Positions 14,229-56,873 of a stretch of DNA of 64,000 nucleotides are shown here, piece by piece (position 1 is the first letter of the stretch; each line of letters starts with the position of its first letter). The notes beneath the pieces are model-generated. The model ran no database searches. It saw only the letters and a program-made list of their open reading frames with translations, and was not told the origin of the DNA. Source of the DNA: Ceratodon purpureus. Its lineage: Eukaryota > Streptophyta > Bryopsida > Pseudoditrichales > Ditrichaceae. The stretch spans positions 73,894,303 to 73,958,302 of the forward strand of contig CM026426.1 of NCBI GenBank assembly GCA_014871385.1, in the 5' to 3' direction. The translations under genes and the position numbers were made by a program.

Positions 14229-17200
14229 TCAAGGAATAAACTCGTCCTCACTTTCAACTCCACTGTGATCTATAAAACGACATCTTGTAGGATCGTATTT
14301 TGAACGAGGACTAGGAGATGCACTAGAACTATGCGATGAGTATTCAGCTAACGCTTGAGCTTGGTCTTCTATGTAACACGGAAGTCACATATCTGAGGAG
14401 GTAGGGGACCGGTAATACCTCCAATCCTTTGCATTCGTTAGTCGTTGACTGAAAAAAAAAACAAGTTGTTAGAAATAAAATGACCAGTTTTCTGCATAAA
14501 CATAACGACAAAGGATCAAGACATACGAAGACATACAGACAAAGAAATACAACTTACTCACATAGACTAACGGTTCCTTGTTCAGGTGGTAGGTCATCGT
14601 CGTCGTCTGAAAGCTCTTGAGTCTGAGGCACCTCTTTCGCCACTGCTTTTGATGACGACGCCATGAGAGGTTGAAGCACCTGTTTAAAGATCTCCTTGTC
14701 GCTTTCTAACGCCAAGATTGCACGGTTGTATGCCTCGGCTGCCAAAATAGAAGCTCCTGCATAGAGTCAAAATAGCATGCTAGTCAAGAAGAAGAAACAT
14801 TAAATGAATTGAATTTAAAGAAAGGAAGAAACTGTCCTCTAACCTGTTCCAACTGTTAGGTCACAAACGATGCCATTCTCTGGACTAAGGCCCCCTATGA
14901 AAAGCTTCATAAGCGAGACTGCTTTTTCTTTTGGACCCCGCCAGTAAACTTCTCCCTGTCGCTTGAGTGCCGTGTCTTCCGTTAAAATATTTGGGATGAC
15001 ATCGTCTCTGGCCAGGTTTATCTTTTTGAACTCTGGCGGAGTTCTAATAACAAATTACTTGAGCTTCTGGTCCATTGCCGTAGCATAGTAACGCACGAGC
15101 AGAATAGCCTTTGATTTGAGAGTCTGCACAGGGTTGATCAAAGGAATTAGTGATAATCAAAGGGTAAGAAGACCTCGTAGTTTCCGCCGTAACCCGCTCT
15201 AGCTGTACCATACTTACACAGGCCTTGCCGGTACCGGCTGTGCCCTGCAAGCTCCATCTTCCCTACTTCAGTTGCAAAGTGCGGTCAAGACATTGCTTGA
15301 AAGGCACCGCCGGTACCGGCGATGCCTTTCGGACATATTCTAACCACCACAGTGGTTGTCAATATTTCTACCACTGTAATGACCAGAGAGTGGCCTCAGA
15401 GGCATCGCCGATACCGGCGGTGCCTGAGTAGGACTATCATCTCCATGGCGCTGGTTGATTTTACCCACGCAGCACTGGAGAATGTAGTGCTCTCAGGCAC
15501 CGCCGGTACCGGCGATGCTTCTGAGGCCACTCTGGGCCTCGCCATGGAAGACGAGTGAGCCCCGCAAACCCGCAAGCAGTAAGAGTACTATGGTTTAAGC
15601 TGAAGCATGAAACAAAATAAAAGAACTAAAGCACAGAATAGAATTGGTACCATCTTAGTGGCGTCCGAGGGGTGAGTCATATGAAGCGAGTTGTAGATGA
15701 GCCACTCGCCCTTCACTTGGAGATTGTTGTTATTTAGAAATGCGCCAACTTCCTTCCTGATCTTGCTGCAGTCAGGGTAGAAGAGAAGTAGAGCACCGTC
15801 ATCGTGAAGGTACTGCCCGCAGAATCCAATTGTGTACTTAACGAAGTCAGCGACCTTACTGTTCCAATGTAGGACTTCTCCCGGGCGGGATGAAGCACCC
15901 GGAACAACTAAGCCGTTGGGGTAATCGGCGATAACCAGGTCCACTGCTGGCTTCTCCTTCAACTTCCCAGCGAAGAAAAATTCCTTACTGGATCGAACCT
16001 GAAAAAACAAAAGGATAATTTAGAATAAAAATATGCTTAAGAATAATAATTATAATAAGTTGATTAATTAAATGGTCTCTTACCCTCTTAAGAAACGACA
16101 CCATGGCTTCAAAGGAGGGAGGGAACTGGCCGGTCTTGTCTCTGACTTGAACCTTGAATGAAACGATTCATCAAGAATGAGAACTTGAGAAAGCGGCCCT
16201 GCTGTGGTGACTGCCTGGCTTGCAGACATTGCTTTCACTAATGGCGGTGTCAACTCTTCTGACTCATCCTTTGAAGATGGTCCGAGCAGCAGTCTCTTTC
16301 TAGGTCTATCCGGGGTGCCGGCACTTGGATGAGACTCTGCCGGTCCGGTATCGACCTTCTTGTTGGCTGCAGCTGTGGTCGCCGGAATGTCCTCCTCCTC
16401 TTCGGCTTGGTCCTTCACCTCATCGTCTGCCTTCCTCTTACGATTCCTTCTTGCTTTCGCTCCGCCTTTTCCCCTTGACGATCGAACTCCTGGAGCAGAA
16501 GGAGATGCTTGAGAAGCCGCAAATGGCGGAGCCTTGGGAATCTTGGCAAGCTCGGGCTGAATGGAGTCCCTTAGTGCGACGTCAAAAGCCGGACACTTCT
16601 TTGGAGGGCAGTCCATGTACCACCCACATCTCTCATAATGCTGTGGATCCCATGCATTCAGAATCGCAGCTGTATACATGCATTCTGCGCTGTCAACATC
16701 CAAGTAATTCGGGAAAAAGGGAGGGACCTTCGAAATCGCCTTTCTGGGCAGAAGAATGTACTTGAAGTACCGATACAAGATCCTTCGGACCGCAGGCTGA
16801 AAATTTGGCTGCTGGTCAGACTTCTTGTTCTTATGGACAAGGTCTCCATTCAACTCTCTTAAAAAAGCAGTATTCCAGAGCTGGCATCTCATTGCTTCAA
16901 CGTAGTCAAAAATATTATCAATCGGGTCTCCATTATCCGGTGTATAATCCACCTGCACCCCGAGATCTGTGATGACTCCCTTGAAAAGCTCCTCGGCCTC
17001 AATCGCCAACTGCAACACCGTAATAACAATTGGTATTTATTGAAACCAATTCGGACGAACCGCTTAGCCTGCAAATTCCATCGCCGGTACCGGCAGCCTG
17101 CTTGAAGCACCTTTGCGGTCACAGAGAAGGCAGTCCGCGTTGCAATCTCTTTGAAAGGAAGGGTGCTTCAATCGCACCGCCGGCATCGGCGGTGACTTCA

Positions 17201-20200
17201 GGGCCCCCGGATAGTCAATGAGCTGGTAATGTTGACTACCGGCTTGTTGACTTCTTGGGTGCTCTGAAAGCACCGCCGGTACCGGCGTTGCCTCTGAAGA
17301 AACTTCAAGTCAAAGGGTTGACAAAGTGGAATGCCTTCTCATGGACTGTTAGGGTCCTTCAAAGGCACCGCCGGTACCGGCGTTGCTTTCAGAGCTCCCG
17401 ATCAGTCGTCGAGCTGGTCGGGGAAGCAACCTGCTCATCGACTTCTCTGGTTCTCCGAAAGCAACGCCGGTACCGGCGGTGCCTTTGAAGGACCCTAACA
17501 GTCCATGAGAAGGCTAATTGGCAGCCTTCTCATTGACTGAAATGGTCCTTCAAAAGCACCGCCGGTAACGGCGGTGCTCTCACACCAACTCGGAAGTCAA
17601 CGGGCAGGTTGCTTCAACAACCTCGTCGATGACTTCCCGGGTGCTCTGAAAGCAACGCCGGTACCGGCGGTGCCTTCGAAGGACCCTAACAGTCCATGAG
17701 AAGGCTAATTGGAAGCCTTCTCATTGACCGGAATGGTCCTTCAAAAGCACCGCCGGTAACGGTGGTGCTTTCAGACCAGCTCGGAAGTCAACGGGCAGGT
17801 TGCTTCAGCGACCTGGTCGATGACTTCCTTGGAGCTTTGAAAGCACCGCCGATACCGGCGGTGCCTTCGAAGGACCTTGACAGTTCACAAGAAGGGTCCT
17901 GCAAAGGCACCGCCGGGAGCGGCGGTGCTTTTGGAGCTCCTGGTCAGTCATCGACCAGGTTGCTTTAACGACCTTGTCGATGACTGACCAGGACCTCAGA
18001 TAGCACCGCCGGTACCGGCAGTGCCTTTGAAGCACCCTTATAGTTACATGGAACGCTAAATAAATAGCCTTTCCACTGACTGTCTTGGTCCTTTAAAGGC
18101 ACTATCGCTAGCGTCGGTGCTTTCATAGCGCCCGGTCAGTATAAGGGATATCTAAACATATAGCCTTCCGAGTGACAGGAGTAATGGTAGAAAGGCACCG
18201 CCAGTACCGGCGGTGCTCTCAGAGCTCCTAAGCTGTCAACAAGCAGTGAGCTGCTCATTGACTGCTTTAGTCTTCTGAAAGCTCCGCCGGTACCGGCAGT
18301 GCCTTCAAACCTTAATAGTAAACACTCAGATGGCAGGATAAATGCAATCAATCGATAGGAAAATTGATAGTTACTCACTTGAGCCCACCATGTGGCCTTA
18401 TGTAGCCATGGCAGAAACACCGCATCGGAAAAACCTGCCTTCGGAAACTTGTGGGCAACCCTGATTGCCTCCGAAGAGTTCCACCTCTGAAGCCACTTCA
18501 CCATCATTGATGCTGGCATCGCAGAGGTCGCCAACATCCACAGCTTCTCCTACTGCATCTCAGGCTTATCATCAGCCTTCTCATAGTGCAGCTTGATTTC
18601 TTCAAGAAATTTCGAGGAGTGCTTTGGATCTGCAATGGGTAACATCTTCCTCAGTTCCTCGGCTAGTTTATCCTCCACCCTCTGGACCGCCTTTGTGACC
18701 CATTCATCTGCTGAACGTTCGGTCCACTGGCTCGGGTTGGGATTAGCCAGCTGATATCGCTGTTGGGCTGCGTGAGCTACCTCCCCGATCTCGTGCTGCA
18801 GTAAATGAAAAAGAAACATATTTATCAATTTTCAAGTCAAAATAAATCCGCGGATTTAAATCTAATCAATACGAGGTTATAAAACTTCGCACCTGATGCA
18901 AGACCGCGTTCAGGGCTTCAACTGATAGTGTATACCAAGTCCGATTCTTTCCAGACTGCTTTTTCTTTGCAGCATCGATGACGGACCGAGAAACAAGCCC
19001 TTCAAAATACTCCACAGGCTGAGGAGCTATGTTTTGTATCCGATAGAGCCTGTGCACAAGGTTTGTAGAAACATGCGACTTCTGATTCCTCCTGCATAAT
19101 CAAAATAATGAATTTCATAAAAAACGTATTACATAAACTTGTAGACTAACCACAGAAGACAATTCAAATAATTCGTTTCATATTAGTTCACTTCATGAAG
19201 GGCTGTGAGCACCGATGGAATTTCTCCCTTGGGGTCGAGGACAACGCTCTCAACTCGGTAATGCCAATTTATGTCACCCGCATAAAACTGCTCAATTATC
19301 GGCAACCAGGCCTGCAACCTGTGGTTTCCATCCCAAACCATAAACATCTTCTTCGAAAAGACCTTCTGATCATCGTCTGCAAGCAGCATCGCCTCGAAAT
19401 CCTCATTCACCTCTTTCCATTCTTTTGACCAAGATTCTTCGATAGCAGGTGTGACCTCAGATGTGTGTCCGTGGTTATCCTCCAGAGCCACGTAGAAATA
19501 GCCGTTGCCCTCCATGTATCCATCTCTGACAAAGTGAACCTGCAGAGTTGATACATCATTCTTCAAGTAGGGTCTTACCACGGGCAACGAAATCATCCGG
19601 CATAGGGGTATGAAGAGCCGGCCTTTGTTCTTTGGTTGCCATCTTAGTCTCTTCAACCTCGACGCTGTGTTGACCGTCTGGTTCGCAACTAGGTCATGGA
19701 GCATCTGATTCACCTCGCGCTCTGTCAATGGAACTGCAACAAAGAGGTGATAGTCAGTTGCTGAAACCGCAAGGGTAACATAGACACCATTACATACGTG
19801 CCGGTACCGGCATCGATTCTGGGCGCAACCTAAAATCCTCATGAGAGAATTCAATACAATTCCCAAAATGTGATGCCGGTACCGGCGACGCATTCTTGTG
19901 TGCCCCAGGGTTCTGCACCCCACCAGCCCAACTTCCCAGAGCAATCACAACCGAACACCAGCGCAACCACCCAACAGGCCATACACCCAAAAACAGCTCA
20001 AAAAGCCCAAAAAGCTACGCCGGTACCGACATCGATCATCGTGCTCTACCTCATCACTCTCCAAATAAGCGACGCCGGTACCGGCGACGACTTCACGGGC
20101 AGATAAGAAAACGGGCAGGGTAAATGATACCCAAGGAGGCGCCTTAGAAGGCAGAGGCAATTCGTGCCCCAAAAGCGATGCCGGTACCGGCGTCGCCTTC

Positions 20201-21575
20201 TTGGGTATGCTCCCGGCACAGCACTTGCGCATTGTCATGCGAGTGCAATGCGCGAGGTTGCCATAGAAGGCGTCGCCGGCACCGGCATCGCTTTTGGGAA
20301 CCAATTCCCTCCGCCGCAGACAGCAACAAAATTAAAACATAAGGAATGAAAATACCTTCGGGTAGAGCATCCTCCTTCTCGGCTTGCGCTGCGTCGTTGT
20401 CGTCCTCTCCTGGATCCTCGGAATTATCCATCTCAACCTCGTCCTCCTCCTAAGGGTTGCGGTATATAGCTCCTCCGCTACCCGACTACGGCTCCTTGGA
20501 GCTGCGACTAGCATCGTCCTCCTCTTCCATACCCTGCGACGTGGGGGTCTTCTGTCCAGACTGTGTCTCCATCTCCTGCATCGACCATGAATAACCCAAT
20601 TAGGACTTAATCCGATAACCCCAAAAACTTCTCGAATAACCTAATTAACACGCAAATTAGCATTACTCACTGACCATACATACCTTACAGTCACTAGAGA
20701 ACGAAGGGGCGATGGACGAGGGAAGAAGTAGGACAAAGAGACCGCGAGGGGAGAAGATATACACGAAAACCGCGAGGGAAGAAGAAAAACAAGAAGACCG
20801 CGAGGGGAGAAGAAGAACAAGAAAACTGCGAGAGTAGAAAAAACAAGGAGACCGCGAAGAAAGAAGAAGAACAAGGGAAAGAATTAGGTTAACTTAGAGG
20901 GAGACTACGGATTGAGTAGAGCTTTGGGTAGGGTAGCCCTGTCTTGGCGGCAATGGTACTGATTATAATCAAAACTTTGCACAACACAAGCAATCACACA
21001 TACGTAAAACATCAATTCAGCTGAAAGGACCTCTGTGCCAAGAACTCATTAAATTAGGCTTGGCGTGAATCACTAACTTCATGAGTTTATGGGCGATTGC
21101 TAAGAGTGTTGTAAAATTGTTCAAAAAAATTCTGGAACTGAAAAGGACTCACTTGCAATCTCGCAACAAAGAAATTAAAATTTCTATAACATACCTCTGG
21201 GGAGTCCTTCTGGGTTTCTTGAACTGCAGTTGTTTTCTTCGCGTGTTTTCCAGCACCCCTCTTGTACTGCTTTGTAATATTCTCTGGTACAACAACTAAA
21301 GGTGTCTCTGCAGCAGACGAGTAATCTAAAACCTTTGCTAGTCCTGCAATTTATAAAGTCTCGGTTCTCTTCTTCTTCTCTCTCGCCATCCGACTAGCCA
21401 TCAACGCTCTTTTTGTACTAAAGTGACTTCCTCTTCTTCGTTTCTTGGCCTTCAATGGGGCCTGCATATCAAGAACCTCTATACAAAAGCATCCTACTAT
21501 CCTAACACAATGAGGGCTCACCTGTCTTGATACAATCGCTTACTTCTTCCTGAGACGAGGAAGATGTCTATGCCA
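14229..21575 (-). CDS. Multi-exon ParB/Srx-like + DNA methyltransferase fusion gene, copy A (several lesions)
   Basis: Exons deduced from GT-AG borders, 5' to 3': 21,522-21,575 and 21,195-21,461 (tentative), about 20,356-20,583 (acidic), about 19,185-19,733 (ParB/Srx-like), 18,893-19,098, 18,379-18,796, 16,084-17,009 (helical plus Lys/Arg-rich linker), 15,651-15,998, 14,844-15,123, 14,558-14,756, 14,229-14,448. The ParB-like part has IPLCRMISLPVV and the signature MFMVWDGNHRLQAW. The MTase part has a motif IV-like DLVIADYPNG and, later, motif I (CDLTVGTGASILAAEA, then ALESD). Motif IV before motif I is the beta-class order of bacterial N4/N6 DNA methyltransferases. Paralogue B matches from end to end. 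In-frame stops lie in exons 20.4-20.6, 18.55, 15.06 and 14.38 kb, and a frame change lies near 16.16 kb, so this copy may be a pseudogene or contain assembly errors. Confidence 0.7.
15215..15525. repeat. Intronic GTAC palindromes of ParB-MTase A (3' group, 4 copies)
   Basis: Four copies of a palindrome close to CACCGCCGGTACCGGCGGTG, centred at about 15,225, 15,310, 15,408 and 15,505, spaced 85-100 bp, each flanked by short complementary arms (such as GAAAGG / CCTTTC). All lie inside the intron between the 15,651-15,998 and 14,844-15,123 exons. Confidence 0.9.
17075..18310. repeat. Intronic GTAC palindrome array of ParB-MTase A (main array, about 14 copies)
   Basis: About 14 copies of GCACCGCCGGTACCGGCGGT-like palindromes at a regular spacing of about 95 bp, from 17,085 to 18,290. 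Two neighbouring units form a 191-bp higher-order repeat (the copies starting at 17,461 and 17,652 are nearly identical over their length). Between palindromes, a second inverted repeat (AGGACCCTAACAGTCCATGA with its rough complement) and GAAGTCAACGGGCAGGTTGC blocks recur. The array fills the 1.37-kb intron 17,010-18,378 and stops short of both exon borders. Confidence 0.93.
19795..20290. repeat. Intronic GTAC palindromes of ParB-MTase A (5' group, 6 copies)
   Basis: Six copies of a sister palindrome with the same GCCGGTACCGGC core but different shoulders (GATGCCGGTACCGGCATC / GACGCCGGTACCGGCGTC), at about 19,798, 19,872, 20,017, 20,070, 20,177 and 20,272, spacing 50-150 bp. They lie inside the intron 19,734-20,355 between the acidic exon and the ParB-like exon. 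Confidence 0.88.
20700..20885. repeat. Degenerate purine-rich tandem repeat, about 35-bp unit
   Basis: About five imperfect copies of a unit like GACCGCGAGGGGAGAAGAAG separated by AACAAGAA. It lies in an intron or 5' region of the ParB-MTase gene A on its pyrimidine-rich strand. No protein is convincing here. Confidence 0.75.
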
Positions 21576-22000
21576 CTGCACTATTGTAGTAGTAGGGCCC
21601 ATGCCAATTCAATGCAGTATTGATCGTGTAGATCGTGGGCAGAGGTTGCATAAGTCTAATTCTATATGTGAAATAAAAAAACAAAAGACAGTACAAGAAC
21701 TAGATTTTAGTAATCTCCTTGACGGCCCGTTTCTTAAAATAAGACCGACTTTATTAAATAGAATGTCCACCATGAATTATAACGACTCATAAAAGATCAG
21801 TTAGCATCTGGCAGCTTCATATCTGTTTACAGTTTAAATTGGTCTTGCTTTACATCTACGAATGAGAAATTAGCGTCGTTTAGGAGTAACGAATGGTTAG
21901 AGTCTCCTGGATAAATAGAGCTACAACAATGAACTATTCGTCTCAAGTTATACATATACCTCTAGTGGCATTGTTGTAACATCAACACGTACTGCAGAGA
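21576..22000. promoter_or_regulatory. Divergent intergenic region between ParB-MTase A and SWIM-MULE A
   Basis: About 425 bp separate the most upstream exon I can see for the minus-strand ParB-MTase gene from the start codon of the plus-strand SWIM-MULE gene. The first coding exon of gene A may also lie here. It is AT-rich with no clear TATA box that I would defend. In locus B the same two genes again face each other across about 0.8 kb, so a shared bidirectional promoter is a reasonable inference. Confidence 0.45.
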
Positions 22001-25000
22001 ATGGCTCATCTCCCTGCAGACAGAGTGTTAGGCATGGCCGTGCTCAGAGCACATGGTGTTGGTATTTCGCTTACAGTACGTGTAGATGAGGATGGCTTGG
22101 CACTTGTGACGGCACAACGCCTTAGCCTCAGATTTCACTTCAGAGAGGAGACTGTCTGTTTAGAGGAAGAGATTTATGATGATGAGACAAATGAGATTAC
22201 ACATACGCTAGATCAGGTTTCGGAGAAAGATGATGATGATAACAGGTTCTGGAACCTTTATCCTGGTAGATACAGAGTTTATGGTCTTACAGAGTCCCAG
22301 ATGCAGGCGTCTACTGAGATTCTAACTCCTCGTAGATCATCTACTATTCAGACTCCTCTGCCTCGTGATGTGAAGGTTAAGGTAGAGCCTGGCTTGGACA
22401 CTCCTGATGTAACACCAGTCATATCCCTCTCCTCAGATGAGGAGACTAGTCCAATGAAAGCATCACCTCCTCTGCCTAGAGAGACTGTAGTATCTAGCAC
22501 GCGTGCTACACTACCAGTTAAATGTGCCAGTATCTCACAGACATCAAAGGAGGAGACTGTCAATGTACTGCCACTCATTAGGACACTTGCAGAGAGACCT
22601 GGGAGGAAAAATATTCTGAAGAGAATAGATTTCTCCACAGTTCGTCAGGAGAAGGTGGAGTACTTACCTGCAGTCTTCAACAACAATGTGATATTTGAGC
22701 TACCTCCTGTTGGTGACGGGGCTTCAAAGACGCAAGCGAAGGCTATGAAGGGGATGGACAAGCGGTACGACGGCCACATTTGGACGAAGACAATCACTAC
22801 CAACATCACTAACGAGTTCGGCCTGTCGTTCCGCTATTCCAGCTGCGTTGGTTGGCTGCGCTGCGTCAACAAAGAATGTGAATTTCTCAACCGTCGACCT
22901 CGAATCGTTGAGGTAAACGAGACTGAGTTTGAGGGTAGTACCCTCCAAGCTTTTACAGTGAATCAGCCACCCCCAGCGGATGCAACACTTGTCTGCAAGG
23001 TATGTAAAGAACCTCCTGCATGTATTGCTACATGCGGAGCCAAGATTTATTATGTTCTAGGTAAATCCAACCAGACTAGGGCATGTATCCATCAGGGAAC
23101 ACATAATCATCCAGTGAAGGTTGGAGACTATAGAGACACTAAGGAGGAGATCAATAGCTTGATTGAAGAACAGGTGGAGAATACTCCCCGGGCTACGAAG
23201 AGTGCCGTTGTCTTGGAGGCCAGCAAGATCCTAATTGGGAACTACCTCCTACAGCCTGAGGACGCACCACCGAAGAAGCTGAGCATGGAGGAGCTCATTC
23301 CTGTACTTGACCGGTGCAAGGACATGGCTTCCCCAAATATCCGCAACAAGGTGATGACGTTCAAGCGAATTGGAAGGTACGGAGTGATGGACGCCATCAC
23401 CAAACTCCGTGGGATCAGTTTGTGGGCCTTCGTCCAAGAGAACAAGTTTCTGGGCCAAGGAGCTGACAGAGAGAAGGTCTTCGTCTTCAAGATGTCAGAA
23501 TTTGGGCCCGGAAGTGGTGTCGACTTGGTCAGCAGAATGCAACCTGGTGGGGATCTTGACAATGCTTGGATTATGTTCGACCACGTGAAGCGTGCACGGG
23601 ATTGGTCGACGATGGCTTGCCATGTATATGACGCCACCTATTGCCGCGTCGTGACGATTGCAAGTTGCGACATGCAATCCGAGGACACTGAGGCTCAGCT
23701 GGTCTTCTGGAAGAACCTAAACAGCGTTATGGAGAGGAATGGCGTTGCAGCGCCAAACTTCAAAGGGTTCATGGCGGACAACGCACAAGCAAATTGGAAT
23801 GCGGTGCGTATTCTATACGGAAACGGCAACAAAGAAGACAAAATGGAGGATCGGGAAAGATCATGCTTGTTCCAGTGGACCCAGAACATGGTCCTGTACA
23901 CTGTCAAGTACTTCCCCGAAGAGCTCCGAGAACAGCACAAGAAGATGTGCAACCCGTATAGGACAGCAACGACTTTGACAGAGGTGGACACTCTATATCA
24001 CGCGTTGCAGGCATGGTGGATATCTACTGGGGTCCTGGGAGAAAAGGCCCTAACCAATCTAGGGACTTCGCTCGCAATCTGGCACCACCGCTTTCGTCAG
24101 TGGGGTGGATTCATGTCTGCGGTATGATGCTACTAAACCCTTCTACTGTACTTGTTTTTTGTTTTGGTAAACTTAGTTGACATCACTTCTATAATTGATT
24201 CTAATTACTGTAATTGCTTCAACTACAGAAATTTACTGAAGAAGAACTCACGGAGATGCCGACCTGTAACCTCGCCGAAACAGTTCACAATAAGTGGTTA
24301 CAAGCATCAGGTAACAACGGCAGCGACCTCTATGTTGCGACTATGGACGATTACGTTCGGGGCTTCCTGCAGGTTGTAAACTACTACCACTTCCTGAAAG
24401 GAGATGTAGGCGGAACTGGACCTTCGAAGAAGGAACTCAAGCTTCGAATGGCAGAACGCTTGGCAAAGAAAACAGGAAATCCTAAAGTCCTTAAAGATCC
24501 CATGCTGGATATGCCTGGTGCAGATGAGTTCTGCACCCGTGAGCCTGTCCTGGCCGAAGCAGAGGTGTTTGGATCACAGAAGCGTAAGGCGGACGTTTCC
24601 ATCGGAGCTGACGAGGAGTCACACCGACCAGACAAGGTTAACTTCTCACGTCCAAGAGGTGTAGGACGTAACGTTCGAGCTCGCCCTGTCCAGCTGCCCA
24701 TCATCGTCGAGGACGATTCTGAAGAAGAAGAGGCCCAAGAATCTCCCGCCCATGAAGCTTACTCGCCCCCAACGTCTCCTGTGAACAAGGTCGGCGTTCG
24801 CCATGTCAACGCTGTCGAAGAAACCAAGGTTGATGTGAAGGAGTGGCACATTGCAAGACTTCACAAAGCTTCTGCAAAGTGCTGCTGGGCCCAAAGAGCT
24901 GGTACAAAAAAGAAGTGCACTGAGAGAATTGTTAGGGGCCCAAACTTCACTGCTGCACCGACCTACACCGGAGTTTGGACTAACTATCGCAGGAATACGG

Positions 25001-25713
25001 TTGAGAGAACAGAGTTTTTCTTCTGCTCCGATGATATTGAGCGCTGCGTGAAAGGCACAAGGCGCAAGTGGGTTGCACACTACTCCAAGGACCTCGAAGT
25101 GCCGCCGATTCCAGAGGTGTGGCCTGTAAAACTAGGTACTAACCTGAAGCTCACTGAGATCCTCGCCCTTGAAGCTGCAGGGTTCCAACTCCCGCCGAAG
25201 AAGCCAGTCTCCCCAAGACGTCTCTTCTCGTCTGCTCCTCCTCCTGCAAACCTTGCTTCGTTGCCGATTCCAGCACAAGCTGACCGCTATCCCGGTAAGC
25301 GAGATGGGAAGATGGTCAAACGCACAGCAACTCGACCTAACCCGGCGCAACGACTCTCCATGGGCTCCTCTCAGTCCTTCAAGGCTCGCCTCCGTTCCAT
25401 CACCATGATACCTCATCCAGGCCATGGTTGCATCATCGGGCTGGATTCGGGCGTTGCTCCAAACATCACACAGTACAACATCACCATCACCTCTTATCCG
25501 AGTTGCACTTGTCGAGCATTCAGGAAGACGATGACTAAGTTTCGAGGTAAGATACAGTTTTCATATTGTAAACATATTTATTACATCCTTTTAAAGGTCT
25601 GCAACCGTGATCCGGAGGCCGAGCTTTTCATCCATGCTCCTACCTTTAGTTTCAACGAAGTCAAGCTAGTCCTAGAGAGCGGAATCTTGACACACCCCTT
25701 GGCCAAAAAATAG
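22001..25713 (+). CDS. MULE-like transposase with GCM/WRKY-type zinc finger and SWIM finger, copy A (intact)
   Basis: Two exons, 22,001-24,121 and 24,229-25,713, joined by clear GT-AG borders, give 1,201 residues without interruption. Residues 250-375 hold a Cys/His cluster (CVNKEC, CKVC, then RACIHQGTHNHPV) like the WRKY/GCM1-type finger that precedes many MULE transposases. Residues 520-650 resemble the MULE DDE core: MFDHVKR, IASCDMQSEDTEAQ, GFMADNAQANWNAVR and CLFQW. Residues 1133-1152 are a SWIM finger (CTCRAF then CKH). MULE transposases cut and reinsert DNA in the nucleus. The N-terminal 200 residues match only paralogue B at 31.2 kb. It lies head to head with ParB-MTase A. I see no terminal inverted repeats around the pair. 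Intactness suggests recent activity or domestication. Confidence 0.75.
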
Positions 25714-26030
25714 GAGGCACTATACTATTATGGTCTCGAGTATGCATAGTGGACAGTGGTTCATGCGGATACTTAGCCTGAGGTGATTGAATTTTTCCTT
25801 GTACTGAGTCAGCAATACAAATCTCGTATTGCCTATTTCAATATAAAGGTTTTGTCATTCACAATGATTACATTGTGTTACAATAGCATTCATTTCAACA
25901 AGTGGCATGTGTTATTTATATCTGGCATAGTTGGACTGTACTAATTCCATGAATACATATAAATATAGATTTTATTCCTTGAACTTAATGCGTTTAGGTA
26001 TCCCCTTCGCATTTTCAGCACAATCACGAA
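25714..26030. other. 3' flank of SWIM-MULE A
   Basis: AT-rich, noncoding, presumably the 3' UTR and spacer. I see no terminal repeat matching the left side of locus A. Confidence 0.4.
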
Positions 26031-26423: not shown

Positions 26424-26433
26424 ATCACAACAC

Positions 26434-26463
26434 GCTCTTCTTGAAACTTATTTCAAGAAGAGC
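26434..26463. repeat. Perfect hairpin, 13-bp arms, 4-base loop
   Basis: GCTCTTCTTGAAA at 26,434-26,446 and its exact complement at 26,451-26,463, separated by CTTA. It lies just upstream of the hypothetical minus-strand frame and could form a hairpin in DNA or RNA. Confidence 0.85.
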
Positions 26464-26639
26464 ACGAACAAAAAGGACGAGAGCTTCTACTGCCACTACT
26501 TAAATATCGAGGAGGTAGATGCTCGGCGCCCTCGAATAGTGGGATATATAAAAATGTTTAAATATTCTACCACTCCATGGCATGAACAGGTTTGTTATCA
26601 CTGTTTTGATTAATTTGTAGACAAAATACCCTAAACCAT

Positions 26640-27880
<1,241 letters not shown>

Positions 27881-28012
27881 CACCAAATCTCCGCTCGCCG
27901 CTCGCCGCACGCATACAAGCTACCCCCGAATCAGGTACAACCATATAGTTCTGTACCAAACAGCCGAAAGCAAGTCTAATCGCATAATAACAACAAAAGT
28001 TGGATGATAAAT

Positions 28013-28560
28013 TTTAAAACAAAGTAAAGCTCAAATCAGCAGTGAGGAAGTCGTTCTGTACAGAACGAAGTAGGCAACGCTAAATAACCGTGTAATTTTA
28101 GACGATTAATAAGGTAAATAAAATTCCGAACTTGCTTTAAATCATGGGCAACTTAGTCATTCTGTAAAGAACTACATGCATCAAGCTAATTTACTAAAAA
28201 ATGTAAATTCAAGAAATTAACATTCCCAGTTCACCGAACAGTCGAAACCAATTCAAATGGCTATAAAAAATAACAAGTAAGAGGATACTTTTAAAATAAA
28301 GTAGAGCTCAAATCAGCACCGAATAAGTCATTCGGTACAGAACAACCTAGACTAAGCTAAATGGCCGAGTTATTTGAAAAATCAATAAATGTGCAGAAAT
28401 TACCATTCCTTGTTTCAATCATGGGCCAGTGCGTCATTCTGTAAATAACTACATGCATCAAGCTAATTTATCAAAAAGTGTATTTTGAATAAAATCATAT
28501 TTCCATGGCTCAACCAAGGTTAATTTGTTCCAAATGATAAAATATAGGTCAAAGCAAATA
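28013..28560. repeat. Degenerate direct duplication, about 278-bp unit
   Basis: Two diverged copies start at 28,013 and 28,291. Shared blocks include AGCTCAAATCAGCA, then a GTTCTGTACAGAAC-like palindrome, then CTACATGCATCAAGCTAATT. Each copy thus carries its own GTAC palindrome. The duplication lies downstream of the truncated SWIM-MULE B exon. Confidence 0.75.
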
Positions 28561-28589
28561 GTCGATCTGTACCGAACCTAGAAATTTAG

Positions 28590-28665
28590 GGCATGGATTG
28601 AGGTCGTTCGGTACCGAACGGGTCAAATTAGGGCAAGAGATATAGGCGTTCGGTATCGAACGTCG
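28590..28665. repeat. Pair of GTAC/GTAT palindromes, locus B type
   Basis: CGTTCGGTACCGAACG near 28,605 and CGTTCGGTATCGAACG near 28,649 are the best-formed members of the dispersed palindrome family that surrounds locus B (27.95-36.82 kb, with outliers at 57.8-57.95 kb). Confidence 0.85.
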
Positions 28666-28729
28666 CATTTTAGGTCATTGAGAACATAAACATAAAATGG
28701 TAAGACAAAAGGTTATTGTGGTTATTTAC

Positions 28730-31180: not shown

Positions 31181-31989
31181 TGTGATACTTCGAATGATAG
31201 AATCAGTAGAGAGTCCTCTGGTTTTATGTAGTCTAAGAGTCTACCAAAAATGAACTGCAACATATTTAGACTAATGTTCAGATTGCCAGATAGGCAGAAC
31301 TGTCAGATCCTTGTATTAGAGGCGGTTGGTAGAAGGCGGCTATATGTCTCAAAACTGTCTAAACTATTCTATGTCCAAAAGCACGGACTCCATGGGCATT
31401 CTGTACAGAATGCCCTTTTCTCACGCGATAAGGATCGGCACAAAGTAAGTACTAGGTGGTCGTTCTGCACAGAATGGACTAGTCCACCTCAATATGAAAG
31501 CCATTAAGAGAGCGTCTTGTGTGGTCACATCCTTGACATTGGGGGAAAAAGTCTCTTCTAAATAGTGTAAATTATAATGATTATTTTTATAAGATAGTAT
31601 TTATATTACAAATGAAAATCCAACAATAGAAGGAATCTTATAATGACGTGGAGCAATATAAAGACAAAATATATATAGTCAGGAATCTATAATCTTGGAG
31701 TACGCCAAAAGGCATCTCCTGTTAAGGGCGACGCCGTCTTAGACTACACAAAATAAGCCAAACTATAATGTGGCATTTAACAACTGCATGCATTCTAATA
31801 TAGTGACAACGCTTTTAGAATAAACTTTAATTTGAAAACGTTTACTATTATCCTTTGGATCGCCGATGAATGATCGCCCATCTCATTTCTCATGCCAGCT
31901 AAGTCATCAGATAGAGCCTTACATAAGAAGCATGGTGTGGACAACAGTGTTGATCACATCAGGATCAGAGATTTAGAGGACTTAAAGAC
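31181..31989. promoter_or_regulatory. Divergent intergenic region of locus B
   Basis: About 800 bp between the start of SWIM-MULE B (minus) and the start of ParB-MTase B (plus). It contains two GTAC-type palindromes, ATTCTGTACAGAAT near 31,405 and a GTTCTGCACAGAAT relative near 31,468. There is no other gene. It is the structural counterpart of 21,576-22,000. Confidence 0.45.
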
Positions 31990-33059
31990 ATGGTCGAGAC
32001 GAGGGCAGTGAGAAGAGCGAAGGCGTTGTTAGAGGGCATTGAGAAGAGTCTTACGAGAGAAACCGTCTACTTGATTGATAGTGTGGGCAACTTAGAGTTT
32101 TATCAGCAGACATACAGACGGAGGGGGCAACGACGTTCTGGCACTTTACAGCAGGTAATGTCCTTCATTCATTGAGTTATCGACCTTGTATTAAAAATCT
32201 TATGATATTTTTGTTTTATCATTTCTTATTCTTATTGCTTTTGTGGAAATCATTTACGGAATTTCTTGCTTCCTCCAGATTCATTTTGAAACATATGGCT
32301 TCAGTGCATTTCGCCATTACCTTGGAGATTTCGTTTGAAGTTTTCATTATAGTAGTGATATGTCTTGCATCAATTGAGCTTCTGCGTATATGGAGACGTA
32401 TTTCTACGCAAATGCCTCCAGTAGGTCATGCCAATGAAATAGATAGTTCGGCAGAGGAGTCGTCAGATGAAGGTACCGTAAGAGAGCCAGATAGCGTTGA
32501 GAACGAACTGCCATCATATGATGAGACATATCAGATGTGGTGTGAATTCTATGATGCAATGGGCGACGAAGAATACGACAACCTCTGTAACCACCTAGAT
32601 AAGTGAGTAGGTGTCGACTGTCGATGGTAGATCGGGTATGATCAGAGTAGAATATTATGATTATAATAACTAGAGAATGGATGAACGTTATTCATTGGCT
32701 AGGGCAAAACCTAAGGGTTTGGGCGGCTGCTTAGAGATAGCTGTTAAGCTAGTCGTAGACTGCGCACGAGTATATCATATGCGAAGCACTTCAGTTCATT
32801 ACACATCAAGTGCCGTGGGAAAGTCGAAGTCATTGAGTTGGAGTACTCGGTGAGTTGGCTGTTCTTTTCGTTTTGCAATCCCATGTATTGTACAATGCTC
32901 TTGGATTTGTGGTCTACATCGTCTTCTCTGAGCAGTCTCTTCGTTTGTTCTTAGAAGTTGACTTGTGCAATTTAGAGAGTAGGAGAGCTTTAAGCTGCAA
33001 AGCTGTAAGGTCAGATATCGATATTGTGTTCAATTATGTTCCACAAAGTGACACTGTAT

Positions 33060-36000
33060 TATGTGTTCTGTACCGAACGCATTCCTTAGATCCGATTTTC
33101 AGGATTAAGTTTTAACTTGAATCGGAAGTCCCAGATGCGGAGTCCTTTCAGAATATGGTGGTTCCTAAACCATTATGTAATCTGTGATGTGTTGTTGGTT
33201 GCGAAAGTTCTTAAGTGGATATACGACATGCGAGTTCTTCTTAGTGACTAGTCTATGCTACTCAGAAATCGTGTTTGCTTTAGCCGTTCTGTGCCGAACA
33301 GTGAATGTCGACTTAGATCAGATTGTTGGGTGTAAATGTATTACTCGTCAACGTGGTATTCACAAGGTATTGATCAACACCTTGACAGTATTAAACACGT
33401 ATTCATTTTCAGTTTTCGATTGAATTAAGCTGCATCAATTGAGTAGTGACTCACTGTTCTGTACCGAACAGTACAAGTATATCTAATAGAAGATGGCACC
33501 ATGCTTCATTTCTTCACCTGTTCTGTACCGAACGGCACTTTCCGCGTCAATTTTATCTTATAAATACTCATTTATGGATATTAATTAGTCCGAATTAGTG
33601 GGTTCTCTGCCGAATACCACCTTTGTTGTCAATATGCTTTAAGTTTCTTCATTCAGTCAAACTTAGGCTGTGCTGAAAATGCAATTTTGTACCGAATTTA
33701 TCAATTTTGAGCGAATTAGCCATAGACATGGATTTTCAATGTTTTTTCAAATGCACATAGGAGAGCCGTTCTGTACCGAACAAGGCACTTTGATGCAATT
33801 CTTGGACCCGAAATCTAGCCCAATCAGACCATACGATTAACTATTTGCATAGTACACCTTAGGCTTAGCTGTCAAGAATTGGGAGACATTGATCAGTTCG
33901 TTGCCGAATGGATGTAAACCACATAATTGAAACTGATAGAAATGATTTTGATATGTTCCAGATAACAAGTCCGATGGCGCAGCAAGTGGGCTTTGACGAC
34001 AAGCTCGAGGCCTCTTCCTCAAATGGACTCTCCAATTCCAACTTTGGTAAGTATCGAATTTCATCAACTAAAACTGTTAGTACATTTTAAGTGGAATCAT
34101 TTTATATGTTCTGTACCGAACTAGACATAACTCTTCAATTGATGTCCTTCTTGTAAAGGGACTGCTCGAGCGGCCTTGACTACTGAAGACTATGCGGGTC
34201 TCGCCGCGCTAATTGTAGAACAAGTTGCAAGTATGAATTTTCAAGGCAAGAGTCATTCAACCTCTCTAACTAGCATATAGTAAACCCGAATGATGACATA
34301 CTTATTTTATTGTGGGCGTTATCGCAGGTGATCAGCACTCCCAGGATGGCGACGACAACGCAATGCAAGACTTAAATCACCCGGTCGTTTTCCAAGGTGA
34401 GTATGCATTTAAGTTCATCTACAAGAAATCTGGTGTTCGGCAACGAACATGCTCTGATCTATCAATTGGCTTATGTCGATATTTATATGTATGTGTAATA
34501 TCAGTTGGCATTTTGTATTCCTTTGATACAAATTTCAATGGTAATGGCGATCCGAATGAGGACACAGATTCGGGAATGGACAATCACCGTGGAGAAGATT
34601 CGGATGCTGAGATTGACGACGGTGAACAAAGCGATCCTGAAGGGCCAAATTCACAAGAGGAGATACCCGAGGCAGGAGAGGATGATGACGAGATCCGTTC
34701 GGACACAGAAGAGGTCCCCAAGGAACAAAGGTTGGACCCCAGAGAAGAATACGACATGATAGTCGCGCATCGGAAAACCCGGGTAAACTCCATCCAGATT
34801 CTCAAAAGGCTAGAGATGTTCCCCAATGGCAAGGCTCAAATGCACATTCCACTTTGTAGAATGCGAAAATTGCAAGTCGTCACACCCGAGTTGGAGAATG
34901 ACGTTGCGAAGATGCAAGCGGAGTTTTCACATGGGTACCGAGATGGAGCTTCAGTTTTTTATGTCTCCACCACCAATTTCCAGGGGCAGGAGAAAATCGT
35001 GACGGAGGCCGAACGAGCCAAGTGGAGCACACATTGGCGCACAAGGGACCGGGAGTTTGAGGAATTTCTGAGTGGAGATCCTGAGCTTGCACCACTAAAA
35101 AATAAATATTTTTATGTTTGGGACGGGAACCATCGTCTGGTTGCCTGGTATGAGTTCATTCGAAAATCGCATAAACAAGACTTGGAGTGGCACTACAAGG
35201 TCCGTTCAATAGTGCTAAGGACTGCAAAAGATGTTACAGATGTCCTCACCGCGATGCATGACATCAACAAGTCGAATGAAAAGAGTCATGTCAAGCAGAA
35301 CCTCGTCCATACTTTGCATCGCATGCAAAAATTGGCCAGCTTTCACTTGAGAAGTTTAAGGATATTCTCACTTCCGAGGAGATGGCTGCGGCAAAGAAGC
35401 AACAGGACGTACCTCTCGAGAAGAGGCTGTGGTATCCTCTGTCTCGAGCAAAAATTTTAGACTAAATCTACAGCGTAAGTGCTTACCTGATTTTCACTTT
35501 ATGTAAACATAAATTCTAGTTATCCGAAATCTGAAAATATTCGTATGTTTGTTATTTCAGCAAGACATCATGGAAGCCGGTGATGAGGGACAACGAAGGT
35601 ACGAGGAAGAGACTCATCGTCGTAAGCGAACTGCTGAGGGATTGAATGCTGCAATTAATGGAGCTATGGAGTCCTAAAGAAAGGCTCTGACAGCACCCTT
35701 CACAAAATTTCTAGCTATCGCCAACCCGGCGAATGGAAAGAATTTTCTACCTGAGGTAATAGCTCTATCATCCTTGTTAGAACTTGATTCATATGACTTA
35801 TCCGCGCCTCTTATGTGAATATGAGTCAAACGGTAGGCATATGATGGGTGGTCTGTGCCGAATGGGCTTCATGCCTCTAATTAAAATTTGTTAAACCTTC
35901 TTGGTTTAATTTCTGGTCAGGCTATGAGTATGGAAGTCACACCAGAAATTAAACCAAGAAGCCATTGAAGTTGGTGTGACTTCCTTAATCTGTTTTTAAA

Positions 36001-36825
36001 AATTCTGTTAAGAGTTAGACCCAGCATTTACATGCAGAATATGGCTCATGCCAAGAACTAACTAACTTGACAGTAGTTATTTTCCTTGATTCGGTGCGGG
36101 TTTATATTGAGACTTCCCATATAAATTTAATTGACTATTACCTCCCCTGCATATTGATTGCGAGGTTATAAACTTTCTCGTCGCTATCATCCTGATCTGT
36201 GCCGAACGACCTTGTTAGTACTAATTTGTTTTCATTTTACAATCATACCGAAGGAAACAAATTATCGTAACAGAGGAAAGAATGAACGTAGGTCTTGTAT
36301 AGTTTGGTCCTAATTTGTAAAGGTCTCGAATCACCCTATGTCGTTTGAACTTGGTGCATGAGTTAGTTTACTTAAAAATAATTCAAGAATCATAATGTCC
36401 GATGTCTTTAAATGAGTAACTGTGATCTCGGCTGCATCATTTTGATTACATGTGCGTGTGTGCTAGGTAACTCTACTTCCGAGAACTAGCGTGCATTAAG
36501 TAATCAGTTTAGAGTTCGTCTATTCATGAAGTGACTGTTCTGTGCCGAACGACCTCGTAGGCTCTAATTCAGACCCTTGCCGAACGACTTTGTAGTTCAG
36601 TCGCAACTCTGAATTTCTATAATTTGTTCTCACATATGTCCGTAACTCTTGAAATATACAAAGGACAGTTGTGATTATTAACATCACTACGGCTTTCAGT
36701 AGAGTCATCTCATTCGCTATTCGGCACCGAACTGGATCTCTGAATCTGATTTAGGAACCGACTGTACTGACTAACTTCACTTTGGTAGTCAGTTGAGTCA
36801 TGACATTCGAAGTTCGGCACCGAAC
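33060..36825. repeat. Dispersed GTAC palindromes in introns of ParB-MTase B (about 12 copies)
   Basis: Copies of GTTCTGTACCGAAC / GTTCGGCACCGAAC and close variants lie near 33,066, 33,287, 33,460, 33,522, 33,769, 34,112, 34,436, 35,850, 36,198, 36,537, 36,720 and 36,811. They have no fixed spacing. All fall between the predicted exons. Similar words occur upstream at 27.95-28.65 and 31.40-31.47 kb. Confidence 0.8.
35897..35984. repeat. Two interlocked perfect inverted repeats (pseudoknot-like layout)
   Basis: Arms of 21 bp at 35,897-35,917 and 35,941-35,961 are exact complements. Arms of 12 bp at 35,932-35,943 (GGAAGTCACACC) and 35,973-35,984 (GGTGTGACTTCC) are also exact complements. The order a-b-a'-b' means the two stems interlock, and they share three bases. 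It lies within an intron of ParB-MTase B. Confidence 0.88.
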
Positions 36826-39800
36826 AAGGTAAATGAAGCTGATTTGTTTTTTAAAAAATATGTATGTCAATTAGATACTGTGTGTAAATTTGAGATGAGC
36901 GTCTTAGATGCTGTACCTTGATCATACGATTTCTTGGTAATATGTGAAACTTATTTGTGCCTTTTCTGAATGACAGATTGCCAAGCATTGGTCGGCCAAT
37001 ATTGTGCCTGAAATGACAACCGAAAAACTGCAGAACTTAGCTGCAGCTTGCATACCACCATCGGAAAAAGAGCTCTTGCTAAAGCTATGGAACTCCTCCA
37101 AATCAGATCGAAAAATGAAGAAGTTTCCAATCTCCCCCTTCAACGATGTTGTCTTCAACAACTATTTGTACAAGTACGTATTCTGGTATCAGTTGAAGGC
37201 AGCATCATTGAAGTTGTACTCTACAATCATGATGGATTATCCAACTTCAGATAAACAATGTTCCCAGTCTTTGGAGAAGTGCATTGACTACAACAGGATT
37301 CACCAATGGGATTATGCATTTAATATTCCTATTATGAAGAAGGAAATCAGCAAGTCTGCTGAGTGGGACACCCCGAAACAGCCCCATGGAGAGCCCGCCA
37401 TGAACCGGCTTATATACAGGTAAGTAGATTTGGGATTTAGATAACATCACATTGACATTGAATTTTATTGTCATTCTTATTTAATTACATCGTTCTACCT
37501 TGAACTCCTATATTCTATGAATGTTACATGTAAATGTGTATAATGTCTCATCTACTTTTTTGGAGTTCTATTATCTCTAGGTATTGGATACACGTACTTC
37601 TCAAGGAAGGAGTGGTCACGAACAAGCATCCTTCCTTTGCCTCGTGGTTGGATATCCAAAACCCAGACACTATGTTTACGTCTGACCAGGCAAGAGATTG
37701 GTCTCAAGACCATCTCTTTGCATGTCATTGGTACATCGAAATGGACCCAAATGAGACTCCACCCCATCTTGTGGAGCTTAGGAGGCAGGTGGAACCGGCC
37801 TTTCAAAGACCGGCACCAGTCCAACCACAAGGAGGTGGGAGGATATCCGGAGTCGAGGTGGCACTAGGTCGTGCACCTAAGCCAAAGGTGAGGGCGCCAA
37901 ATTCGGTCCCTGCCAAGGCACTTACGGTGGCACCAATAGGCCGCGAGGTCGGGCCAAAGACAAACAAGCGCCCTGCAACAAAGCCACTTGTAGAAGATGA
38001 GACTCCGAAAAGAGGAAAACACTCCGAACAGGATCAAGACCTTGCTGACCTCGCCGAGGTTAATCAGTCCGAGGTCAAATCTTCCAGGTCGCAATCTCAC
38101 ACGGGCCGTAGCTTCGGTGGAGGTCAGGGTTCGCTTCTTTGGTCTTGCCTCATTGACCGCGCTCAACATGGAACTGTTTACCATGAACATCTTGTTAACA
38201 AGCCGGTTGCGGATTTCTTGAGCTCGGACTCTGCCATCTTTGAAGAGTTCGCCAAAAAGGTATTCATTTTTTAAACTCTATGCTCTCGGCTTTCTCGCTG
38301 AAATTTAGTCAATGATGCGAGTATATATTATTGACATTCTATATATTGTTTAAATGCAAGCGCGTGGCAATGAAGAAACCTATATTGGTGGCAAAAAAGG
38401 GATGTTTCCCTGTGCTGATCTAGTCATACTGGATCAACCCTTTGACTCCATTGTCTCGGGTTTTGGAAACAAAGTTCCGCAATGGAACTCCATGGCTGGT
38501 AAGGAGAAAGAGTGGTATTCGACACGCTTCGAATTTGCCTCCTGATTCGTTAATGACGATGGGGGAATTCTTATTCTCATGCCCTCGGGTCTGAATTACG
38601 AGCTTATGGGCTAGATTAAGAAGTACAGGCTCAGGACCAAGTGCGAGTGGTCATGCCACCAGTTTGAACCCCTCACGCATCCTACATATGACGACATGAT
38701 GGTATTGCTTCTCCCCTTTCAATTTTACGATGACTTCGTAGATGTCTGAACCATGTGTAGAAATGATATCGGATGTGTAGAATGTGGCTAGTAATCTTGA
38801 AGGTGAACCAGAGTAAGATCCTAAGCACTTACTAACATTCAGATTTGTATGGACAGACATACATGTTCTCGGCATTATTGTTGCTAAAGACCGGGAAGGC
38901 ACCTGGAAAATCCGATTGGGACCGCATACTGAAGCCACTGAAGCTCAATTCCGACCCTCTGCTAGCGAATACCCCAGATGATCCTTTACGGTTTTCTAAC
39001 ACTCAGGAACGACGTTCAGAAGACCACGCTAGGTCTTGACCTCAAACCTTTGCGTGGCCCACATGAGAAGAGTGATGTTTTTTTCTAGATCCTCATCGAG
39101 ATGTGCTCCAAGGAAGGCGACTTGGTTGTTGATCTCAGCGCCTCGACTGGCGCTTCCCTTCGAGCTTGCCGCGCTTCAGGCAGGCATTTTTTTGGCATAG
39201 AGGAAGACTCCCACATTTTCAACACGGTTTTGGCGCCAATGTGCAAACCACCCGAATCGCCGAAGCCACGCAGCCGAAGGGGTATGGATGCTTCTTTCAT
39301 CCCATGAATTCGACCAATTAGTGTACTCAGGACCTCGCCAATCTCTGTATTGAGGTTCGACTGAACGTATCCCGCAAGCATTGAAATCTCAACAGTAAGA
39401 GTTCATGGTTATTCCGGCTTCATTTATTTCTGAATTCTAATGCATGTCAAGTCTTACTCCGAGTATCCCATAAGTCCGTCGCAGTAGCCTACAATTCACA
39501 CTGGTCGCAATCTTTGAAGTCGTCGCAGCATATGTTCAGGAGTTGAGCAACTCCACTTGTCATCCCCTCACCGTTCTAAACGCCTCCAGTAAAATGACTA
39601 CTTCGATCTCGATCCTTTGCAGGTCTCAATGGATTCTGCAGACCCTTTTTTGCAGACCCAGACTTCTTGAGAAGTCCATCACCGACATACTCTCTTCCCC
39701 CTCAGATCGCGGCGCTCGCAAATTTCGTCGCGGACCAACAGTCACCTGAGAAGAGCTCCGAAAGAAGTAATTCGTATTACAGAGGGAATCTGTACGTGGA

Positions 39801-40242
39801 CATCGAAGCAGCCGAATCCGTATCCGAAGGTAGGACTGTAGACATGTTGCATCCAGAATCATCGGGAGATAGTTTCATATTCCCCTAGTCAGCAAAGTCC
39901 ATAACATTAGAAGAATTGGTAGACTTGGTGCATGGTCGTTCGGATATGAACTGAAACTTAGTCGTGAGAATATTGGGCCCGGTGCAAACACCATCATGAA
40001 CAAGTGAGAATATTCCAAGTTAAGAGCTATTCGCGAGGTAATTGTCCCGCTGTCCAACTCGCCCATATGCTGTTGAAAATCCAGACCACGCTAGACGAAC
40101 TGGACAAAACCAGACTCTCTGTACGAACTTTCAAAACTTCAAGGTGCAACTTTGGTAAAATTGAAGTATAATGATCTCCTTCAACGAGGAAGTTTACGAA
40201 CACATTCTCAAAAAAAAGGATTGTGCCCAGCGTATTTGCATT

Positions 40243-44390: not shown

Positions 44391-44421
<31 letters not shown>

Positions 44422-44623: not shown

Positions 44624-44639
44624 CATCTCAAATTAGGGC

Positions 44640-56860: not shown

Positions 56861-56873
56861 TAAGTTTGAGATG

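What the first reader, a model, noticed from the sequence alone, without database searches (positions are those of the whole stretch)
14229..39888. A head-to-head gene pair (ParB-MTase and SWIM-MULE) occurs twice, in inverted orientation
Locus A is MTase(-)/SWIM(+) and locus B is SWIM(-)/MTase(+); in both, the genes diverge from a short central region. The proteins are well diverged between copies, so the pairing is old and kept. This is what a two-gene autonomous element or a functional cassette would look like: a transposase with a DNA modifier that could mark, protect or un-silence its own DNA.
Basis: partly seen in the sequence, partly recalled or inferred. Interest (0 to 1): 0.92.

Follow-up and report, generated by a model that had tools for sequence, protein, structure and literature searches.

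The report
Moss jumping gene with self-recognition partner
Two decayed, distantly related plant jumping genes, probably from a moss, each carry a cut-and-paste enzyme gene back to back with a gene of bacterial design, and each has its own repeated palindrome in its non-coding DNA, as if the partner protein recognises its own element in order to escape silencing.

Summary

An intact relative (L001), found later, has a third one upstream of its gene. This resembles Arabidopsis VANDAL/VANC sequence-specific anti-silencing, with an unrelated protein. Best reading: a VANC-like self-recognition anti-silencing factor (inferred). Pairing elsewhere could not be tested: the genome search did not complete.

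The parts
14229..20572 (-). MTase-A: ParB + middle + beta-class methyltransferase-like partner gene of locus A, about 9-10 exons (approximate), broken (TAG 20486-20488, TAG 20450-20452, TAG 18550-18552, TAA 15055-15057; change of frame near 16158)
19186..19734 (-). ParB-fold exon of MTase-A (DGNHR motif near 19332)
15649..15998 (-). MTase-A methyltransferase motif IV exon, 'DYPN' at about 15926
   Evidence: PF01555 E 1e-5 for the typed composite, just under the Pfam cut-off; position opposite CcrM DPPY
14598..15114 (-). MTase-A motif X/I exons, 'DLTVGTG' near 14862
15226..15514 (.). A-type palindromes CGCCGGTACCGGCG, 4 sites, in an MTase-A intron
17082..18298 (.). A-type palindromes, 13 sites mostly 95-96 bp apart, in the large MTase-A intron; neighbouring units are inverted copies
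19799..20287 (.). A-type palindromes, 6 sites, in the intron before the ParB exon
22001..24121 (+). MULE-A exon 1: zinc-binding-like N part and DDE core with D527 and D593
   Evidence: 58 relatives; AF2 and fold comparison; D527/D593 in 37 of 37 aligned
24229..25713 (+). MULE-A exon 2: predicted third catalytic E724 (about 24277) and C-terminal SWIM (25495 to about 25585)
   Evidence: SWIM PF04434 above cut-off in relative P0055
28732..31180 (-). MULE-B, exon 1 only, with in-frame stops; exon 2 with E and SWIM not found in the window
27948..28661 (.). B-type palindromes (GTTCGGTACCGAAC-like), 6 sites downstream of MULE-B exon 1
31394..33909 (.). Centre of locus B: perfect palindrome GGGCATTCTGTACAGAATGCCC at 31394 and 6 B-type sites (33065-33909)
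33963..39888 (+). MTase-B partner gene, broken (TAA 35675-35677, TGA 38543-38545, TAG 38612-38614; change of frame near 35340); 5' exons approximate
34540..35372 (+). ParB-fold exon of MTase-B (DGNHR at 35122)
   Evidence: 41.7% to A over 163 aa
34108..36825 (.). B-type palindromes in MTase-B introns, 6 sites (34108, 34435, 36194, 36537, 36719, 36812), partly on 343-344 bp tandem units
38361..39283 (+). MTase-B methyltransferase exons: 'DQPF' at 38432, 'DLSASTG' at 39131

Best explanation
The two loci are decayed copies of two old lineages of one MULE family with two divergent genes: a DDE-SWIM transposase and a partner built like a bacterial ParB-methylase. The partner's methyltransferase half has lost its canonical catalytic motif and probably works as a DNA-binding or cofactor-binding module. 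The partner most likely recognises a palindrome private to its own lineage, repeated through that element's introns and intergenic DNA, and through that binding keeps or makes the element's own chromatin transcribable: sequence-specific, in trans, anti-silencing by the logic of VANC in Arabidopsis VANDAL MULEs. Shown: the divergent gene pair in two lineages, the ParB fold (model), beta-MTase homology with altered motif IV, a MULE/IS256-like DDE fold (model, modest score), and lineage-specific palindromic repeats in non-coding DNA in three of three partner loci with DNA. Inferred: that the partner protein binds the palindrome, and that binding counteracts silencing. The host is inferred to be a moss from one named relative.
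For: Pair and divergence. MULE: fold comparison led by the IS256-family ISCth4 transposase, then retroviral integrases and Hermes; D527 and D593 in 37 of 37 aligned; SWIM above the Pfam cut-off in P0055, which aligns with MULE-A along 1025 columns. ParB fold. MTase homology: PF01555 for A (E 1e-5) and L001 (E 5e-4), both below Pfam's cut-off; DpnA E 9e-7 and CcrM 33-252 E 6.5e-4 with a profile of A, B and L001; phrog_3008 E 1.9e-8 for A. Palindromes: a 10-mer scan chosen without regard to palindromes puts pieces of them at the top in both loci, 30 vs at most 6 in 6 shuffles (A) and 17 vs at most 8 (B); 23 of 23 A sites and 18 of 18 locus-B sites are outside my exon models, though exons are 60% and 48% of the loci. 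Out-of-sample: L001 has an intact gene and three identical 12-bp palindrome cores in the 551 bp upstream, reached in 0 of 500 shuffles; its 18-bp form has no hit within 3 mismatches in the window, its 14-bp form one hit at 3 mismatches (33800). The same pattern (non-coding, tandem, differing between relatives) is what PMC5735166 reports for VANC targets (sections read).
Against: No binding or methylation data. Only three partner loci with DNA, two of them dead. Pairing is untested outside the window and L001 ends 551 bp upstream of its gene. None of 14 MULE clusters on contigs of 10 kb or more has the contig length of any of 23 such ParB clusters among the 120 listed (read by eye). No element ends found. 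In A no palindrome lies near the MULE gene. The B palindrome is weak as a palindrome: only 2 identical perfect 12-bp copies, its commonest form is imperfect, and the count of near-palindromes in locus B (16) barely exceeds the shuffles (mean 7.4, largest 14 of 20). Other parts of the window also have repeated motifs above their shuffles (51.6-53.4 kb, 54.9-57 kb, 58-62 kb) or more near-palindromes than shuffles (57-64 kb), so own motifs are not unique to this family. MULE-A itself has Q where 36 of 37 aligned have H in the CxxH motif. No DNA-binding (HTH) region of the partner was identified.
Confidence: 0.45

Rival explanations
1. The partner is a working sequence-specific DNA methyltransferase with an unusual catalytic motif; it methylates its palindromes (6mA or 4mC) to mark its own copies, for transposition control or protection.
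For: Motif X/I region well kept in A, B and L001; B keeps an aromatic at position 4 of motif IV (DQPF); beta-class enzymes such as DpnA and CcrM are the closest solved structures by sequence.
Against: The second proline is lost in all three and the aromatic residue in A (DYPN) and in the intact L001 (DVPE); motif I has T or S where the usual motif has F.
Confidence: 0.15
2. The palindromes are binding sites of the MULE transposase (subterminal-repeat-like), and the ParB protein has another job.
For: Clustered short motifs bound by the transposase are common in other DNA transposons (recalled, e.g. Ac and Spm); other parts of the window that look like different elements also have own motif clusters.
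Against: In A all 23 sites lie inside MTase-A introns, in the middle of the locus and away from the MULE gene and from likely ends.
Confidence: 0.15
3. The palindromic arrays are satellites without a function in the element, or dsRNA-forming arrays that feed host silencing; the pair is an old two-gene transposon whose partner role is unrelated to them.
For: A's array alternates in orientation and could fold as long hairpins (183-nt arms, 83% complementary); both window copies are dead; tandem arrays expand easily; the B sites are only loosely palindromic.
Against: A separate palindromic repeat beside or inside the partner gene in three of three lineages, each different, with 0 of 41 window sites in exons.
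Confidence: 0.2
4. Not one element: ParB-MTase and MULE belong to separate mobile elements or host genes that lie together here by chance or nested insertion.
For: No shared borders found; contig-length comparison gave no positive hint of pairing elsewhere.
Against: Same divergent arrangement in two lineages with about 30-40% protein identity.
Confidence: 0.1

Closest known systems
VANDAL MULEs of Arabidopsis with VANC anti-silencing proteins (PMC5735166, sections read; PMC10398659, abstract)
   Same: MULE transposase plus a partner gene; short lineage-specific motifs in non-coding DNA (introns, intergenic), often tandem, differing between related elements; no clear terminal inverted repeats.
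   Different: Partner is ParB plus beta-MTase-like, not DUF1985/DUF287; motifs are long palindromes; probable moss host; anti-silencing not demonstrated; VANDAL21 also has VANB.
Bacterial ParB-methylase such as Bce_0392 (described in PMC5512222, passages seen)
   Same: ParB-superfamily domain fused to an adenine-type methylase.
   Different: Eukaryotic gene with spliceosomal introns beside a transposase gene, extra middle region of about 500 aa, altered catalytic motif; nicking activity untested.
Fungal DNA transposons that carry a TET/JBP dioxygenase (PMC12730594, abstract seen)
   Same: DNA transposon with a captured DNA-modification-related gene proposed to aid escape from silencing.
   Different: Different enzyme, different transposon superfamilies, no element-specific motif reported in the abstract.
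CcrM and DpnA (beta-class N6-adenine methyltransferases)
   Same: Motif order IV to X/I and sequence similarity.
   Different: DPPY replaced by DxPx.
IS256 family, ISCth4 transposase
   Different: Bacterial insertion sequence, no such partner gene (recalled), about 10% identity.

Membership tests
Mutator (MULE) superfamily | RNase H-like DDE transposase of IS256/MuDR type | tested here: met
Mutator (MULE) superfamily | Match to the Pfam MULE profiles | tested here: inconclusive
   No MULE profile at E<=1 in 37 members; SWIM in 2. Absence of a profile match does not exclude membership
Mutator (MULE) superfamily | SWIM zinc finger, common in plant MULEs | tested here: met
   PF04434 above cut-off in P0055, below it in P0057, not reported in P0008; P0055 aligned along MULE-A; no hit for MULE-A exon 2 itself; not found for locus B in the window
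Mutator (MULE) superfamily | Terminal inverted repeats and 8-11 bp target duplication | tested here: inconclusive
   None found by blastn of flanks; copies are old, and non-TIR MULEs exist (PMC6446971 passages)
VANDAL/VANC | VANC protein with DUF1985/DUF287 | tested here: not met
   No such Pfam hit in the ParB set (42 members, E<=1) or in the L001 protein
VANDAL/VANC | Lineage-specific motif clusters in non-coding DNA of the element | tested here: met
VANDAL/VANC | Partner binds the motif and causes loss of DNA methylation | not testable with these tools
   needs binding and methylome data
ParB/sulfiredoxin superfamily | ParB/Srx fold with conserved arginine (DGNHR here) | tested here: met
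ParB/sulfiredoxin superfamily | CTP binding and clamp formation, HTH for parS | not testable with these tools
   no HTH region was modelled
Beta-class N6/N4 DNA methyltransferase | Sequence homology with motif order IV then X/I | tested here: met
   PF01555 E 1e-5 (A, 26.0 bits) and 5e-4 (L001, 20.5 bits), cut-off 26.7; L001's exon 5 alone gave no PF01555 hit; CcrM 33-252 E 6.5e-4, DpnA E 9e-7 by profile
Beta-class N6/N4 DNA methyltransferase | Catalytic [DNS]PP[YFW] | tested here: not met
   DYPN, DQPF, DVPE in A, B, L001, opposite CcrM DPPY

The most novel reading that the evidence does not exclude
A eukaryotic transposon family runs a parS-like self-recognition system: a ParB-fold protein fused to a repurposed methyltransferase loads on palindromes private to its own element and spreads over it, as ParB does from parS. 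It thereby excludes or removes host silencing marks, and the palindrome and protein co-diverge so that each lineage frees only itself.
Probability: 0.2. Interest if true: 0.93.

Novelty: new variant of a known kind. Interest (0 to 1): 0.76.

Why it matters
Sequence-specific anti-silencing by transposons is known in detail from VANC in Arabidopsis MULEs. A probable moss MULE family that reached the same design with an unrelated protein of bacterial type would be independent evidence that element-private motifs plus a trans-acting self-recognition factor are a general solution in the arms race with silencing. It would also be a use of a ParB-fold protein in a nuclear transposon, a possible tool for targeted epigenome editing, and a direct test bed: three protein-palindrome pairs are already proposed.

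Tried and rejected
Recent inverted duplication of one locus: rejected by divergence. Alternative genetic code to explain the TAG codons: considered and rejected, because all three stop types occur in the broken genes by my models and the L001 gene is intact under the standard code. Terminal inverted repeats for A and B: best candidate a 17-bp 16/17 match (14227-14243 vs 25968-25984, E 0.019) without a matching flank by eye; taken as chance. Annotation of the middle domain: none found. Full-length partner search with the A composite: no hit at E<=0.01 among the 7997 candidates scored, which I explain by intron-split gene calls; the exon-level search worked. Viral contigs: three scans, no relatives. 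Looking for palindrome-encoded peptides in 178 relatives: nothing useful. GTAC as a shared core of the palindromes: dropped, because L001 has GATC at the centre; CGG-NN-CCG is common to the best sites of A, B and L001, possibly by chance. Rfam at gathering scores: no match in the window. Plasmid collection, near mode, 4511 bases of locus A: no match. Literature: no paper held all the terms. The other searches listed only part of what matched in most cases (20 of 33; 33: 12 of 34; 34: 12 of 205; 75: 8 of 8; 79: 6 of 6; 112: 12 of 20; 118: 5 of 5; 121: 8 of 143), and no title or abstract start shown there describes a ParB-methyltransferase in a plant transposon; I did not see the unlisted ones.
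Full report
WHAT WAS CHECKED. The window is from a eukaryote: introns, a gypsy-type element at 5435-10819 and long TA microsatellites. Among the 178 relatives listed, the only one named by organism is P0103, a hypothetical protein on the U chromosome of the moss Ceratodon purpureus, so the host is probably a moss (inference). In locus A a multi-exon gene on the minus strand (20572 down to 14229) diverges from a 1201-aa transposase-like gene (22001-24121 and 24229-25713); in locus B the arrangement is mirrored (31180 down to 28.7 kb, and about 33.96 to 39.89 kb). Protein comparison within the window links A and B at 39.5% identity over 443 aa for the transposase and 41.7% over 163 aa for the ParB-like exon. 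Joined exons of the partner align at 30% identity over 944 columns; these joins were made by eye.

STATE OF THE COPIES. MULE-A is open along its whole length but has Q instead of H in the CxxH motif, where 36 of 37 aligned sequences have H. MULE-B has a TGA at 30065-30067 and a TAG at 28751-28753, and no exon 2 was found in the window; exon 2 carries the SWIM region and the predicted third catalytic residue E724. Both partner genes look dead: A has TAG, TAG, TAG and TAA plus a change of frame; B has TAA, TGA and TAG plus a change of frame. I read across these only for comparison.

THE OVERLOOKED FEATURE. Scanning non-coding DNA of each locus for the most frequent 10-mers (one mismatch allowed) gives, at the top, pieces of one palindrome per locus: 30 occurrences in A against at most 6 in six shuffles, and 17 in B against at most 8. 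Ten sets were scanned. The six controls reach 4 to 8; two of them (51.6-53.4 kb and 54.9-57 kb, both 8) also exceed their own shuffles (largest 6 and 5), as do the flank of MULE-A (8 vs 5, A-rich) and the third element at 58-62 kb (7 vs 5). With at most 3 mismatches, CGCCGGTACCGGCG occurs 23 times in 64 kb, all in three introns of MTase-A, 13 of them in a mostly 95-96-bp array; GTTCGGTACCGAAC occurs 21 times, 18 of them in locus B (array). None of these 41 sites falls in the exon models of its locus, although exons make up 6950 of 11485 bp in A and 5803 of 11990 bp in B (exon limits are approximate and tandem sites are not independent). The commonest B site is GTTCTGTACCGAAC, one pair short of a perfect palindrome. 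As perfect 12-bp palindromes A's core recurs 14 times and B's only twice (each 0 of 500 shuffles). A count of all near-palindromes gives 25 in A (shuffles: mean 8.7, largest 13 of 20), 16 in B (7.4, 14), 7 in L001 (3.6, 6), 13 in 57-64 kb (3.9, 9), and chance levels in 1-14.2 kb and 45-57 kb. So the case is strong for A, fair for B. One B-type site lies outside, at 57939, and two weak matches lie at 2601 and 16343.

AN OUT-OF-SAMPLE CASE. After this was seen (note), a scan of bacterial and archaeal genomes with the ParB alignment returned one locus, L001, a 4691-bp contig in a cyanobacterial metagenome bin. Its gene has six GT-AG introns by my model, so the contig is eukaryotic contamination (inference). 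It encodes an intact 1136-aa partner, 27% identical to A and 28% to B. In the 551 bp upstream, the palindrome core CTCGGATCCGAG occurs three times exactly, which none of 500 shuffles reached, and a fourth, weaker copy is present. Its 18-bp form has no hit within 3 mismatches in the window; its 14-bp form has one at 3 mismatches (33800). The A and B palindromes have no hit in L001. So three of three partner loci with DNA have their own palindromic repeat. The contig ends before any neighbouring MULE could be seen.

INTERPRETATION. In Arabidopsis VANDAL MULEs, VANC proteins bind short motifs in non-coding DNA of their own element and cause loss of DNA methylation; the motifs form tandem repeats that differ between related elements (PMC5735166; I read Results part 1 of 2, the tandem-repeat section and the Discussion; PMC10398659 abstract). 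The present family shows the same anatomy with an unrelated partner. I therefore think the partner is a self-recognition factor that binds its palindrome and counteracts silencing; binding and effect are inferred. It is not a VANDAL, since VANC domains were not found.

AGAINST AND OPEN. Pairing beyond the window is untested, because 19 genome-search requests did not complete. As a rough substitute I compared contig lengths by eye: 14 of 58 MULE clusters and 23 of 120 listed ParB clusters lie on contigs of 10 kb or more, and no length is shared. This counts mildly against strict pairing, but short or broken MULE frames were excluded by the length filter and 122 ParB hits were not listed. No element ends were found. 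In A the sites avoid the MULE gene. Active methylation, transposase binding and functionless satellites remain possible.

Noticed in passing
window 58581-63013 and 63511-63972: A different, unclassified transposase-like gene (+) whose non-coding DNA is rich in GTAC/GAGTAC motifs, with a SET-domain gene (PF00856, E 1.1e-15) on the opposite strand at the window's right edge: possibly another element with a chromatin gene.
   Followed up: partly
window about 44000-57000: Another probable element with ATTGTTTCAA/CAATATTG-type repeats on both sides (near 44.8 kb and 56.56-56.85 kb), enclosing protein-kinase (PF07714 E 1.7e-17 for a peptide joined by eye) and PDI-like gene fragments at 49.0-51.2 kb, like captured host genes.
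   Followed up: partly
window 40240-40390 and 41724-41874: 151-bp inverted repeats, 99% complementary, 1333 bp apart, at the right edge of locus B.
   Followed up: no
window 57840-57955: A B-type palindrome outside locus B (57938 GCGTTCTGTACAGAACGC) and, by eye, a weaker one about 100 bp before it, perhaps the remnant of another B-type element.
   Followed up: no
window 5435-10819: Ty3/gypsy-type element with RT, RNase H and gag.
   Followed up: no
window 21180-21480 (-): A lysine/arginine-rich frame upstream of MTase-A that may be a 5' exon, which would shorten the central region (read by eye).
   Followed up: no
L001: A eukaryotic, probably moss, contig binned in a cyanobacterial metagenome-assembled genome (CADCWO010000058.1).
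   Followed up: partly
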